DNA of 64,000 nucleotides from an uncultured Mucispirillum sp. (lineage in GTDB: Bacteria > Chrysiogenota > Deferribacteres > Deferribacterales > Mucispirillaceae). The stretch is from positions 62,001 to 126,000 of the forward strand of contig CALUZC010000002.1 in the NCBI GenBank assembly GCA_944325215.1, in the 5' to 3' direction. Below the pieces are notes generated by a model. It was not told the origin of the DNA and made no database searches. It saw nothing but the letters and a program-made list of their open reading frames with translations. Below are positions 5,710 through 17,239 of this stretch, piece by piece (the stretch's first letter is position 1; each line of letters opens with the position of its first letter). Position numbers and translations under genes: made by a program.

Positions 5710-6900
5710 CTAATATATATAATTATTTATTAATTCTTTTATATTTAGATAGTGTTCCACTATTTTTACATTATCTATATCACTTCTATCTACATGTATT
5801 CTTGAACTATATTTATCAGAAGTTGGTAATATCAATCCATTAATGATTTTATAATTTTTGTATTTTGACAATAAATTATAGTGATACACCATTTGTTTAT
5901 AATTTAGATTATCAATTTTATCATAATATTTTGAATCAAATAAGTATATTTCCTTAGCTATACTATCTATTTTTATATGGTCATACCTAATTTTAAATTT
6001 TCTAGTATTATTTTGTGCTATTGTATGTTTGCTTTCAATATCATCACTATCTGTATCATAAATACCATCAGCACCTATTTTTTTACTTATAATCATTTTA
6101 TCATTAATAATATTAATATTATTATTATTTAAAAAAGACATTACTATTTTTTCCCAATAAAGCTCAAAAGTTGTAGTAACAAATCTAAAAATACCCAAAT
6201 TAGATGATTTCCACTCAAAATATTGAATTAAATTATTAATTAAATTTTTTTCGATATCTTTAAAATAATTATTTCTAATCTTTTTTAGTTCATTAATAAT
6301 CATTTCAAATGAAATATTGAGTAAATGATTATATTTATTTTTATATCTATAAATTTCTTCAATAAAAGTTGAATATTGAACTGCATCATATAACACTAAA
6401 TCCATGCAATAACTTATAAAAACATCTACATTTTCTGACGATTTTACAATAAACGGATAAAAAATTATTCCATTCGTTTGCAATATCTTTAATGAAGCAT
6501 TTATTGTTTTATACCAGTCAATATTCCCAATAAAATCTTTATTATATTTAATTTCTTTTTGTTTATATAATCCATACTTTTTAAAGTAACTTAATATATA
6601 GTAATATGCACGGATAGGAAAATTATTATAATCATATTGATTTACACCAATATTATTAAGCTTTTCTTTACTAAATAAATGCAATATTTTTTTGATTAAT
6701 TCTATTTTTTCATTTTCTGTCTCATTATTTAAATAGCATTTTTTAGGAAACGACATTAGTATATCATTACGCTTTATAATAATCCCAACAAAATTTATTG
6801 TCTTTCTATTTGGATAATAATTACATAAATCATAGATATTCCATTTATCTATAAAATCATTAGTAATGTTTTCTCCATCATTAATAATATTAATTTTCAT
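5710..6900 (-). CDS. McrC/LlaJI-R2-like restriction nuclease subunit
   Basis: Likely DNA-cleaving subunit of a McrBC/LlaJI-type restriction enzyme, working with the McrB-like NTPase encoded just upstream. Counting from the ATG at 6900 (396 residues), the C-terminal third holds a PD-(D/E)xK nuclease core: Asp307 in RYDHIK, then the DSK triad at Asp322-Ser-Lys324 in LFDSKYYD, with helix acids near 246-250. This matches the D...DxK pattern established for E. coli McrC. The N-terminal two thirds are McrC-like but strongly diverged. The ATG at 6900 has GTGAG five bases upstream and overlaps the McrB stop by 11 bases; a GTG at 6909 is an alternative. The gene is extremely rich in Asn, Ile and Lys. 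Confidence 0.8.
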   Translation of the reverse strand: MKINIINDGENITNDFIDKWNIYDLCNYYPNRKTINFVGIIIKRNDILMSFPKKCYLNNETENEKIELIKKILHLFSKEKLNNIGVNQYDYNNFPIRAYYYILSYFKKYGLYKQKEIKYNKDFIGNIDWYKTINASLKILQTNGIIFYPFIVKSSENVDVFISYCMDLVLYDAVQYSTFIEEIYRYKNKYNHLLNISFEMIINELKKIRNNYFKDIEKNLINNLIQYFEWKSSNLGIFRFVTTTFELYWEKIVMSFLNNNNINIINDKMIISKKIGADGIYDTDSDDIESKHTIAQNNTRKFKIRYDHIKIDSIAKEIYLFDSKYYDKIDNLNYKQMVYHYNLLSKYKNYKIINGLILPTSDKYSSRIHVDRSDIDNVKIVEHYLNIKELINNYIY

Positions 6901-14104: not shown

Positions 14105-15439
14105 GTGGCAGAATATGATGTTATAATTGCAGGGGCTGGCTTGGCAGGCAGTGAAGCAGCTTATCAGCTTGCAAGTCATGGTTATAAAGTTAAGCTAATA
14201 GAAATGAGACCTGATAAAACTACTCCAGCACACGAAAGTGATAAGTTTGGAGAGCTTGTTTGTTCCAATAGTTTAAAGTCTATTGATAGCACAACTTCCA
14301 GTGGGCTTTTAAAAAAAGAACTTTCCTTATATGGCTCATTTTTAATTGATACTGCTTATAAATGCAGTGTGCCTGCAGGTAATGCGTTAGCAGTTGATAG
14401 GATATCTTTTTCCAATATAATAACCGATACTTTAAAAAACCATAAAAATATAGATGTGGAATGCTTAGAATTAAAAGAAATGCCACTTGATACTGATACT
14501 CCCTTTTTAATAGCAACAGGTCCTTTAACAAGTGATGATTTAGCTTCAGATATTAAAGAAAAACTAGGGGGAGCATTATATTTTGCTGATGCCATAAGCC
14601 CTATAATAGATGCAGAAAGTATTGATATGGATAAGGGCTATTTTTTAGGCAGATATAATAAAGGCGGCGATGATTATTTTAATATCCCTTTAACAGAAGA
14701 AGAATATAATACTTTTTATGATGATATAATGAATGCACCAAAAACAGCATTTCATGATTTTGAAGATATTGCATATTTTGAAGGGTGTATGCCTATAGAA
14801 GTAATGGCAGAGCGTGGAAGAAATACTCTAGCTTTTGGACCTATGAAACCTGTTGGTTTAATTGACCCAAAAACAAATAAAACTCCATATGCTGTAATAC
14901 AGCTACGAAAAGAAAATAAAGATGCTACAGCATTTAATATTGTGGGCTTCCAAACTAAAATGACAATAGGAGCACAAAAAGAAGTATTTAGAAAAATACC
15001 TGCTTTAAGGACGGCAGAATTTTTACGCTTTGGCTCAGTTCATAGAAATACATATATTGTAGGTCCAAAACATCTTACAAGGTATTTTAATTTTAAAAGT
15101 AATAAGAACTTATTTATTGCAGGTCAAATTACAGGGCTTGAAGGGTATGTGGAATCTATTGCAGGTGGCTTAATTGCTGCACTGCAAATATCAAGATTAA
15201 TTGAAAATAAACCCTTTTATGAACTTCCTAAAAATACAGCTTTAGGCTGCCTTTCTGATTATATTTCAGGAATTTCAGAATTTTCTAATGGTAAAAAATA
15301 CAGCCCATCAAATTTTCATTTGGGTATGCTTGCCCCACTTGAAAAAAAGATAAAAGATAAAAAACTTAAAAAACAAATGCAGGTAGATATTGCATATAAT
15401 ATGGCAAAAGATTTTTATGAAGGGCATGTATGGAAATAG
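14105..15439 (+). CDS. trmFO: Folate-dependent tRNA (uracil-5)-methyltransferase TrmFO
   Basis: TrmFO makes the m5U54 of the tRNA T-loop using methylenetetrahydrofolate and FAD. The N-terminal dinucleotide fold reads VIIAGAGLAGSEAA (5-18), followed by IEMRP and the CSNSLKS segment that carries a conserved cysteine. ITGLEGYVESIAGG near 340-355 is the C-terminal FAD signature. Length, 444 residues, is standard. The start is GTG, nine bases past topA, and the 3' end overlaps xerC by ten bases. The topA-trmFO-xerC order is common in other bacterial phyla as well. Confidence 0.95.
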   Translation: MAEYDVIIAGAGLAGSEAAYQLASHGYKVKLIEMRPDKTTPAHESDKFGELVCSNSLKSIDSTTSSGLLKKELSLYGSFLIDTAYKCSVPAGNALAVDRISFSNIITDTLKNHKNIDVECLELKEMPLDTDTPFLIATGPLTSDDLASDIKEKLGGALYFADAISPIIDAESIDMDKGYFLGRYNKGGDDYFNIPLTEEEYNTFYDDIMNAPKTAFHDFEDIAYFEGCMPIEVMAERGRNTLAFGPMKPVGLIDPKTNKTPYAVIQLRKENKDATAFNIVGFQTKMTIGAQKEVFRKIPALRTAEFLRFGSVHRNTYIVGPKHLTRYFNFKSNKNLFIAGQITGLEGYVESIAGGLIAALQISRLIENKPFYELPKNTALGCLSDYISGISEFSNGKKYSPSNFHLGMLAPLEKKIKDKKLKKQMQVDIAYNMAKDFYEGHVWK

Positions 15440-16344
15440 ATAATGCAGTAGAAGAATTTATTAATTTTATAAGGGTAGAAAGGCAGTATAGCACACAAAC
15501 TATTACAGCTTATGCAAAAGATTTAAGCGAACTTGCTATTTATATTGATAATCAAAAACTGGAAAATAATATAAAAGCAGTAGATTTCTATGTGCTGCGT
15601 GGTTTTATTACTACTTTATATGATAAAGAACTTTCCAAATCCAGCATTGAAAGGAAAATATCTACTTTAAAATCATTTTTCAAGTTTCTATACAGGCGTG
15701 GTATAATTGAAGATAACCCTGCTAGAATGTTAAAATTTCCTAAAAAAGAAAAATATCTGCCAAATGTATTTAATGTAGATGATATTTTTACACTTTTAGA
15801 CCTGCCAGATAAATCTACCCCTATGGGTATGCGGGACGCTTTAATATTGGAGCTATTATACGGCACTGGTGTTCGTGTATCTGAACTTGTGGGGCTTGAT
15901 AGAAGCATGGTAGATTTACAGGGCATGAGAATATTAGTGCTTGGTAAAGGTAAAAAAGAACGTATTGTGCCACTTGCCCCTGAAATAGTATCATTAATTA
16001 AAGATTATTATAAGGTAATGTATGATATAGTAAGTGAAGGTAGAATGGTGGAAAGCGATGCTTTAATAATAAACAGGCTTGGCAGCCGTATGACAGACAG
16101 GACTATTCGCCGAGTAGTAGAAGCATACCTTAAAAAAGCAGGGCTTCCCCTTGATTATTCACCCCACTCTTTTAGGCATACATTTGCCACCCATTTATTA
16201 GAAGGTGGAGCAGACCTTCGCTCTATACAGGAGCTTTTAGGCCATGAATCCCTTGCTACAACTCAAAAATATACCCATTCTGATTTAGCCTCACTTTTAA
16301 AAGTTTATGATGATACTCACCCTATGGCTAAAAAAAATAAATAA
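15430..16344 (+). CDS. xerC: Tyrosine recombinase XerC/XerD
   Basis: Site-specific recombinase that resolves chromosome dimers at dif. The N-terminal SAM-like domain (1-105) is followed by the catalytic domain with Arg149 (GTGVRVSEL), Lys175 (GKGKKER), His246 and Arg249 (HSFRHTF), His272 (LLGHES) and the nucleophile Tyr281 (QKYTH). All six catalytic residues are present. The 304-residue length is normal. XerC is preferred over XerD because of its place after topA and trmFO, but the two are hard to separate by sequence. There is no sign of phage or integron neighbours that would suggest an integrase. Confidence 0.9.
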   Translation: MEIDNAVEEFINFIRVERQYSTQTITAYAKDLSELAIYIDNQKLENNIKAVDFYVLRGFITTLYDKELSKSSIERKISTLKSFFKFLYRRGIIEDNPARMLKFPKKEKYLPNVFNVDDIFTLLDLPDKSTPMGMRDALILELLYGTGVRVSELVGLDRSMVDLQGMRILVLGKGKKERIVPLAPEIVSLIKDYYKVMYDIVSEGRMVESDALIINRLGSRMTDRTIRRVVEAYLKKAGLPLDYSPHSFRHTFATHLLEGGADLRSIQELLGHESLATTQKYTHSDLASLLKVYDDTHPMAKKNK

Positions 16345-16376: not shown

Positions 16377-16405
16377 TTGATATTCCCCCCCCCCTGTGAT
16401 ATAAT
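16377..16405 (+). promoter_or_regulatory. Promoter with a C10 tract in its spacer (probable phase-variable promoter)
   Basis: TTGATA (16377-16382) and a perfect TATAAT (16400-16405) are exactly 17 bases apart, the optimal spacing. Ten of those 17 bases (16385-16394) are consecutive C, a striking run in a genome this poor in GC. Gain or loss of one or two C by slippage would move the -35 and -10 apart or together and change transcription of the lipoprotein gene that starts at 16500. Confidence 0.85.
16385..16394. repeat. Homopolymeric C10 tract
   Basis: Ten consecutive C on the plus strand, located inside the promoter spacer. I noticed no other C or G run this long in the window. Such runs are mutable by slipped-strand mispairing. 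Confidence 0.95.
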
Positions 16406-16499
16406 GAAAAAGCATTTTAAATGGTGAAAAAAAATTAAATAAGTTTTTTAACTAGTATGCCATCTTTTGTCATGCCATTATAAAAAAAGGAGATATTTT

Positions 16500-17189
16500 A
16501 TGAATAAATCTTTAATATCAATCTTGTTAGTAGTATTTCTTGCAGTAATTTCAGGCTGTGCTGATACTGGCTCAGGCGGTGGAACTAGCTCAGGTGGTGG
16601 AACTAGCTCAGGTGGTGGAACTAGCTCAGGCGGTGGAACTAGCTCAGGTGTAGATGAAACAATTATTGAACTTACTAAAAGTAGTGATGAATATATGGAA
16701 CGCACTGAGCCTAAAGCTGTAACAATCACTAACCCTAGAAAAGATAAAGGGGAATACTATCCTATTTTAATAAGCACAGCTATGGGCTTAAATGGAGAAG
16801 TTGATTTATCTTATTTTGACTTTGGTATTGTTAAAGGTATTGCATATGAAACATTTTTCGGAAGCAGTAGTTCAAACAGCAATCTTGTTCTCAATGAAGC
16901 AGGAAGAGATATGTATGATTTAAATGGTGAAACAGCTTTAAAGGAAAATGGAAAAGGCACATATTATGTTTGGATTACTAGTGGGAATAGTATACCTAGC
17001 GAAGGAAAACTTGTAATTGCTTTTTTAACTAAAGAAGAAGCTAATAAATATATACCAAATAATGATAATATTGTTCTTTCGCCTGATGGTGAGACTATGA
17101 CATATAACCCAAAATTTCTTGATAATACAATAGTAGATGAATTAAATAAACTTGGTGCATTAAGACAGTATACATTTACTGTAAAATAA
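16500..17189 (+). CDS. Phase-variable repeat-containing lipoprotein of unknown function
   Basis: Predicted lipoprotein of 229 residues. AAGGAG lies seven bases before the ATG at 16500, which is preferred to a longer frame at 16467. The N-terminus is Lys followed by a hydrophobic stretch ending in VISGC, so lipidation is expected at Cys20. Then come four copies of GGGTSS-type sequence (about 24-50), a flexible spacer encoded by 18-bp DNA repeats. The remaining 180 residues are acidic and soluble with no motif I recognise. It has its own C-tract promoter and its own terminator, so it is a single-gene unit. On/off expression and a variable-length stalk suggest a surface antigen or host-contact protein; that is inference. 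Confidence 0.85.
   Translation: MNKSLISILLVVFLAVISGCADTGSGGGTSSGGGTSSGGGTSSGGGTSSGVDETIIELTKSSDEYMERTEPKAVTITNPRKDKGEYYPILISTAMGLNGEVDLSYFDFGIVKGIAYETFFGSSSSNSNLVLNEAGRDMYDLNGETALKENGKGTYYVWITSGNSIPSEGKLVIAFLTKEEANKYIPNNDNIVLSPDGETMTYNPKFLDNTIVDELNKLGALRQYTFTVK
16571..16650 (+). repeat. 18-bp tandem repeat, about 4.4 copies, within the lipoprotein gene
   Basis: Units begin at 16571, 16589, 16607 and 16625, with a partial unit to 16650; they differ only in a C/T at the seventh base. Each unit encodes six residues of a Gly-Thr-Ser stalk. The period is a multiple of three, so copy-number change alters protein length and not frame. Confidence 0.95.
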
Positions 17190-17211: not shown

Positions 17212-17239
17212 AGCCCACAATTATTTTGTGGGCTTTTTT
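17212..17239 (+). terminator. Rho-independent terminator of the lipoprotein gene
   Basis: A 9-bp perfect stem (17212-17220 with 17226-17234) around a 5-base loop is followed by a run of six T, 22 bases after the stop codon. Confidence 0.9.

What the first reader, a model, noticed from the sequence alone, without database searches (positions are those of the whole stretch)
16377..17189. Phase-variable promoter: C10 tract between a perfect-spaced -35 and -10 of a lipoprotein gene
TTGATA and TATAAT are exactly 17 bases apart and ten of the intervening bases are C. A C run of this length is very unlikely by chance in this AT-rich DNA. Slippage would change the spacing and switch the gene between strong, weak and off. 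This promoter-spacer mechanism is established for Neisseria porA and opc and Bordetella fim genes. The target is a lipoprotein with a repetitive stalk, so it fits a surface antigen. The current length is the optimal, high-expression one.
Basis: partly seen in the sequence, partly recalled or inferred. Interest (0 to 1): 0.9.

Follow-up and report, generated by a model that had tools for sequence, protein, structure and literature searches.

The report
Slippery promoter switches for surface lipoproteins
A run of ten Cs sits inside the promoter of a surface lipoprotein gene in the gut bacterium Mucispirillum, and it is one of dozens of near-identical C-run promoters in this genus, mostly in front of unrelated lipoprotein genes, so it probably belongs to a genome-wide set of random switches for the cell surface.

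Summary
In detail: TTGATA-N17-TATAAT at 16377-16405 with C10 at 16385-16394, the only C/G run of 7 or more in 64 kb. The host is a Mucispirillum species (Deferribacterota). The locus is one of a family. Its genome has 31 C/G runs of 9 or more (0.3-1.2 expected). I catalogued 75 sites with a C run just after a -35 hexamer in nine Mucispirillum genomes and one sister-genus genome; 40 other Deferribacterota genomes lack the motif. They precede about 25 unrelated gene families, 58% with a lipobox (window background 1 of 50, this gene). The non-C spacer is almost always 6-7 nt, with compensating flanks. Tract length differs in 5 of 16 homologous groups; this locus is C10, C9, C10 in three species. 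Other G tracts lie inside surface-sugar and DNA-methylase frames; one methylase is G11 and frame-broken here, G9 and open in relatives. This supports slippage-driven phase variation. Unproven: within-strain switching, and that 17 bp is the high state (ordinary promoters here peak over 15-17 bp; most C-tract promoters sit at 15; an extended -10 may soften spacing effects). MutS and MutL are present. The mechanism is known; the organism and scale appear undescribed.

The parts
16377..16382 (+). -35 hexamer TTGATA (5 of 6 matches to TTGACA)
16383..16399 (+). 17-bp promoter spacer TT-C10-TGTGA; non-C part 2+5 = 7 nt, against 6 in most relatives
16385..16394 (+). C10 homopolymer, the putative slippage tract; C9 in G003, C10 in G005
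16397..16398 (+). TG of an extended -10 (TGn-TATAAT)
16400..16405 (+). -10 hexamer TATAAT (6 of 6)
16487..16492 (+). ribosome binding site AAGGAG, 7 nt before the ATG
   Evidence: read directly from the sequence
16500..17189 (+). lipoprotein gene, 229 aa, accessory, no Pfam match; homologs in other Mucispirillum also mostly behind C-tract promoters
16500..16559 (+). lipoprotein signal peptide and lipidated Cys20 (lipobox ISGC, by pattern)
16566..16648 (+). 18-bp tandem array, 4.6 copies, encoding the Gly/Ser/Thr linker; linker differs in length between orthologs
17212..17234 (+). terminator-like hairpin after the gene
15430..16344 (+). xerC-like tyrosine recombinase gene, upstream neighbour, used to find the orthologous place in relatives

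Best explanation
This is a contingency (phase-variable) promoter. The C10 tract is part of the -35/-10 spacer of a sigma-70-type promoter that drives one surface lipoprotein gene. During replication, slipped-strand mispairing adds or removes a C, which moves the two promoter elements relative to each other by one base pair and so changes transcription of the lipoprotein. The locus is one of at least 12 such promoters in this genome and of 75 catalogued in the genus and a sister genus, in front of many unrelated genes, mainly lipoproteins. Independent slippage at each would give a population with many combinations of surface lipoproteins, alongside frame-shifting G tracts in surface-sugar and DNA-methylase genes. 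Shown from sequence: architecture, recurrence, constrained geometry, gene class, and length differences between species. Inferred: that this promoter is used, that slippage happens within a strain, that length changes expression, and which lengths are high or low.
For: Promoter architecture and chance expectation. Genome-wide excess of tracts: 31 runs of 9 or more in G000, 0-4 in the sister genus g2. The promoter family in 9 of 10 Mucispirillum genomes with zero reversed-pattern hits, and in no genome outside Mucispirillum and g3 among 51. Non-C spacer total 6 or 7 in 31 of 32 clusters, prefix and suffix compensating, rho -0.58, p 5e-4. 40 of 69 downstream genes with a lipobox against 1 of 50 window genes, about 25 unrelated families. 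Length differences with homologous flanks in 5 of 16 groups, including this locus. Coding G tracts in classical phase-variable gene classes, with a type III methylase G11/frame broken against G9/frame open in relatives. Precedent for spacer switching: PMC2268961, PMC7864442. Modal length 9 as a slippage equilibrium: PMC8355987.
Against: No within-strain length variation or expression data. 11 of 16 homologous groups show no length difference, nearly all C9. The modal spacer is 15, not 17. The extended -10 may blunt the effect of spacing. MutS1 and MutL are present, which should lower slippage rates. Homopolymer lengths in draft assemblies can be off by one.
Confidence: 0.8

Rival explanations
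1. Rheostat rather than switch: slippage occurs, but because the promoter has a TGn extended -10, RNA polymerase tolerates 15-17 bp spacers and the tract only tunes lipoprotein level, with clear loss only at about 14 bp or less or 18 bp or more.
For: Extended -10 in 49 of 69 C-tract promoters against 3 of 52 ordinary consensus promoters with 15-17 bp spacers. Ordinary promoters about equally common at 15, 16 and 17 bp.
Against: About 20 C-tract promoters, with 3+3 or 4+2 geometry, lack the TG, so it is not a required part. The tight 6-7 nt non-C spacing suggests that spacing matters.
Confidence: 0.3
2. Fixed element: the C tract of about nine is a conserved regulator-binding or structural part of a promoter class, held constant by selection, and does not switch.
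For: C9 in 51 of 69 sites and 15-bp spacer in 43 of 69; many orthologs keep C9 between species; bases around the tract are also conserved.
Against: Coding tracts in the same genome have the same modal length of nine, where no promoter geometry can explain it. Lengths 7-11 occur among related promoters, and this locus itself varies. Flanking bases vary while the total is kept. C. jejuni tracts also settle at G9-G10 through slippage bias (PMC8355987), and T. pallidum tprL is mostly G9 yet varies 7-11 in vivo (PMC7864442).
Confidence: 0.12
3. Assembly artefact or chance homopolymer without meaning.
For: The genome is a 67-contig draft; exact homopolymer counts in drafts can be off by one.
Against: The tract is found at the orthologous locus in G003 and G005, and the same architecture in nine genomes, one of them a single 2.35-Mb contig.
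Confidence: 0.02

Closest known systems
Mycoplasma hyorhinis vlp, M. arthritidis maa2 and M. mycoides vmm lipoprotein promoters (PMC2268961, citing Citti and Wise 1995, Washburn 1998, Persson 2002)
   Same: Insertions or deletions in the -35/-10 spacer turn surface lipoprotein genes on and off. From my own knowledge, vlp genes also carry repetitive coding regions, as this gene does.
   Different: From my own knowledge, vlp uses a poly-A tract and clustered homologous genes; here a C tract, dispersed loci and about 25 unrelated families.
Neisseria meningitidis porA
   Same: Homopolymer of G/C between -35 and -10; transcription falls when the optimal 17-nt spacing is reduced (PMC7864442).
   Different: One porin gene; here many lipoprotein genes, a modal spacer of 15 and often an extended -10.
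Treponema pallidum tp0126 and tpr poly-G promoters (PMC7864442)
   Same: Several dispersed surface-protein genes with promoter poly-G tracts; tp0126 is best at a 17-nt spacing; tprL tracts are mostly G9 but vary 7-11 in vivo.
   Different: Tract position differs between the tpr genes; no single shared promoter core as here.
Neisseria opc
   Same: A promoter poly-C tract controls transcription of a surface protein.
Campylobacter G/C-tract phasome (PMC8355987)
   Same: Dozens of G/C tracts, mode G9-G10, in surface-sugar and other genes, some intergenic.
   Different: Campylobacter is mostly intragenic and lacks mismatch repair; here a large standardised promoter class, with MutS and MutL present.

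Membership tests
Promoter-spacer SSR phase variation (porA/vlp type) | Homopolymer lies between the -35 and -10 of a recognisable promoter of a gene | tested here: met
Promoter-spacer SSR phase variation (porA/vlp type) | Tract is longer than chance and above the length at which slippage is common | tested here: met
   C. jejuni tracts of G9-G10 slip (PMC8355987)
Promoter-spacer SSR phase variation (porA/vlp type) | Tract length differs between related genomes at conserved flanks | tested here: met
   this locus C10/C9/C10; 5 of 16 groups differ. Between species only.
Promoter-spacer SSR phase variation (porA/vlp type) | Tract length varies reversibly within a strain | not testable with these tools
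   no reads or multiple isolates of one species available
Promoter-spacer SSR phase variation (porA/vlp type) | Transcription changes with tract length | not testable with these tools
   needs reporter or RNA data
Promoter-spacer SSR phase variation (porA/vlp type) | Controlled gene encodes a surface-exposed product | tested here: inconclusive
   lipobox by pattern; surface exposure not tested
vlp system of Mycoplasma | Homologous lipoprotein genes clustered side by side | tested here: not met
   sites are dispersed over many contigs, about 25 unrelated families
SSR phasome of the Campylobacter type | Many G/C tracts in surface-modification genes, with on and off frames among relatives | tested here: met

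The most novel reading that the evidence does not exclude
Mucispirillum has a dedicated phase-variable promoter class: one standard module (TTGACA, 2-4 nt, about C9, 2-4 nt, TATAAT, often with extended -10; spacer = tract + 6) that has come to stand in front of about 25 unrelated lipoprotein and secreted-protein families, making a combinatorial surface-coat generator whose common C9/15-bp state is poised at the edge of the promoter's working range.
Probability: 0.35. Interest if true: 0.78.

Novelty: new member of a known kind. Interest (0 to 1): 0.62.

Why it matters
Mucispirillum is a core mouse gut bacterium associated with inflammation in mouse models (PMC5285517). I found no description of phase variation in it in the held library. 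If its lipoproteins switch at random by tract length, isolates, mice and experiments differ in surface antigens in a way that ordinary annotation misses, and tract lengths offer a cheap readout of selection in the gut. The set also allows promoter-spacer switching to be compared over dozens of natural promoters in one organism.

Tried and rejected
Spacer optimum from exact-consensus promoters: such matches are no more frequent overall than reversed-pattern controls, so only the 15-17 peak over flanking bins is used; weak evidence. IMG/VR search for the core motif: one hit, in unrelated sequence, taken as chance, so no sign that phages spread the module. Structure of the lipoprotein: AlphaFold2 with 9 sequences gave mean pLDDT 61; the best PDB match (N-terminal domain of PorA, 6kjk, E 1.3e-3, TM 0.30) is too weak to use. 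Pfam: no match for the lipoprotein. Loss of mismatch repair as a cause: rejected, MutS1 and MutL are present. Artefact: rejected by orthologs. Literature on Mucispirillum phase variation: nothing relevant.

Full report
CHECK. TTGATA at 16377-16382 and TATAAT at 16400-16405 are 17 bp apart and the spacer reads TT-C10-TGTGA. It is the only C or G run of seven or more in the window; the Markov expectation for C10 or longer in 64 kb is 0.001-0.005. The promoter scan gives 11 of 12 matches, with a TG one base before the -10. The gene (16500-17189) encodes a 229-aa lipoprotein with an 18-bp tandem array after the lipid anchor, followed by a terminator-like hairpin.

ORGANISM. XerC next door is 94% identical to one on a contig titled Mucispirillum schaedleri and 85-86% to other Mucispirillum bins. 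The window is part of a 2.55-Mb, 67-contig draft, G000.

GENOME-WIDE. Searching its own genome with the region returned other copies of the promoter, not of the gene. G000 has 31 C/G runs of nine or more against 0.3-1.2 expected. In the 222 kb of G000 held (loci chosen for their tracts), runs of six number 3, of seven 0, of eight 2, of nine 22, of ten 6, of eleven 3: a separate population peaking at nine. The seven Mucispirillum genomes of at least 90% completeness have 13-43 such runs, sister genus g2 0-4, genus g3 (one genome) 64, most other Deferribacterota 0-8, with a few exceptions.

PROMOTER FAMILY. TTGACATT, then seven or more C, then a -10 occurs in 9 of 10 Mucispirillum genomes with no reversed-pattern hits. 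The shorter TTGACATY-C8 form is in 10 of 51 phylum genomes, nine of them Mucispirillum and one g3. Allowing other bases between the -35 and the tract adds further promoters, such as TTGACAAAT-C11-GAATATAAT. I catalogued 75 sites, a lower bound because one listing was cut; 69 have a good -10. Bases between the hexamers other than the tract total 6 (50 of 69) or 7 (11 of 69); after collapsing similar promoters to 32 clusters it is 6 or 7 in 31. Prefix and suffix compensate (2+4, 3+3, 4+2; rho -0.58, p 5e-4; permutation test of the variance of the sum p 0.02). So total spacing looks constrained and the tract looks like part of the promoter. Spacers are mostly 15, then 16; this window's 17 is unusual.

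GENES. Of 69 sites with a downstream gene found, 40 have a strict lipobox and several more a relaxed one; of 50 window genes only this one does. The proteins form about 25 unrelated families by BLAST. Of ten representatives only one has a convincing Pfam match, an RCC1-repeat lipoprotein.

LENGTH DIFFERENCES. In 16 groups with homologous flanks, five differ in tract length: this locus C10/C9/C9/C10 (one member a paralog), C9 against C7, C8 against C9, C10 against C9, and C7/C11/C10. The single-contig genome G002 has lengths 7-11 (4 of 10 at nine), while the others are mostly nine (52 of 65; Fisher p 0.014). One reading is that drafts report the commonest length of a mixed population; sequencing method could also matter.

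CODING TRACTS. More than a dozen G000 tracts lie in or at the ends of long frames, including EptA-like and other sulfatase-family enzymes, glycosyltransferases, methyltransferases, FdtA, a formyltransferase and a DNA methylase of the N6_N4_Mtase family that I read as type III Mod. The methylase tract is G11 with the frame broken in G000, and G9 with the frame open in G003 and G008, with near-identical flanks. Because coding and promoter tracts share the mode of nine, slippage equilibrium rather than promoter geometry probably sets it, as reported for C. jejuni (PMC8355987).

MECHANISM. Slipped-strand mispairing changes the spacer and hence transcription, as for vlp, maa2 and vmm (PMC2268961), porA and tp0126 (PMC7864442). 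Which length is high is open: ordinary consensus promoters peak evenly over 15-17 bp (17, 19 and 16 collapsed cases), though that set contains many chance matches. The extended -10, present in 49 of 69 C-tract promoters but 3 of 52 ordinary ones, may allow a 15-bp spacer to work. For this locus the simplest prediction is that C8-C10 fall inside the working range and C7 or fewer, or C11-12 and more, outside it; this is inference.

LIMITS. No within-strain data, no expression data, lipobox by pattern only, draft homopolymer counts. MutS1 and MutL are present, so rates may be modest. The gene itself is accessory: absent between xerC and the next gene in some relatives (L066, L075), and shortened by an early stop in G003.

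VERDICT. Observation confirmed; interpretation largely right but incomplete, and its claim about the current expression state is not established. The mechanism is known; its presence and scale in this phylum appear undescribed in the held library.

Noticed in passing
L061:1964-3846 (G000:C19): A probable type III DNA methylase gene is interrupted at a G11 tract here, while relatives G003 and G008 have G9 and an open frame; a candidate phasevarion.
   Followed up: partly
L041, L045, L055, L056, L057, L064: G/C tracts of 9-11 inside or at the ends of phosphoethanolamine-transferase, glycosyltransferase, formyltransferase, FdtA and methyltransferase frames; probable translational phase variation of surface sugars.
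   Followed up: partly
L178:92-1840 (G005): Two neighbouring lipoprotein genes, each behind a C-tract promoter, share a near-identical body but have different signal peptides, which suggests recombination between paralogs.
   Followed up: no
L053:1708-4200 (G000:C6): Tandem duplication of an approximately 800-bp unit that carries a C9 promoter and a lipoprotein gene.
   Followed up: no
L049:919-2643: An RCC1-repeat lipoprotein (Pfam PF00415, E 8e-98), a eukaryote-like beta-propeller, sits behind a C9 promoter and is conserved in six Mucispirillum genomes.
   Followed up: no
G048, G039, G042, G013, G014: A few other Deferribacterota genomes also have many C/G runs of nine or more (12-65), perhaps independent gains of G/C-tract phase variation.
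   Followed up: no
L074, after position 6900: In this Mucispirillum bin the stretch after xerC breaks off inside the promoter upstream region and continues as unrelated sequence flanked by a short inverted CTGCTTCACCCCCAT repeat, possibly a mobile element.
   Followed up: no
G002: The single-contig genome shows a wider spread of promoter tract lengths (7-11) than the other genomes (mostly 9).
   Followed up: partly
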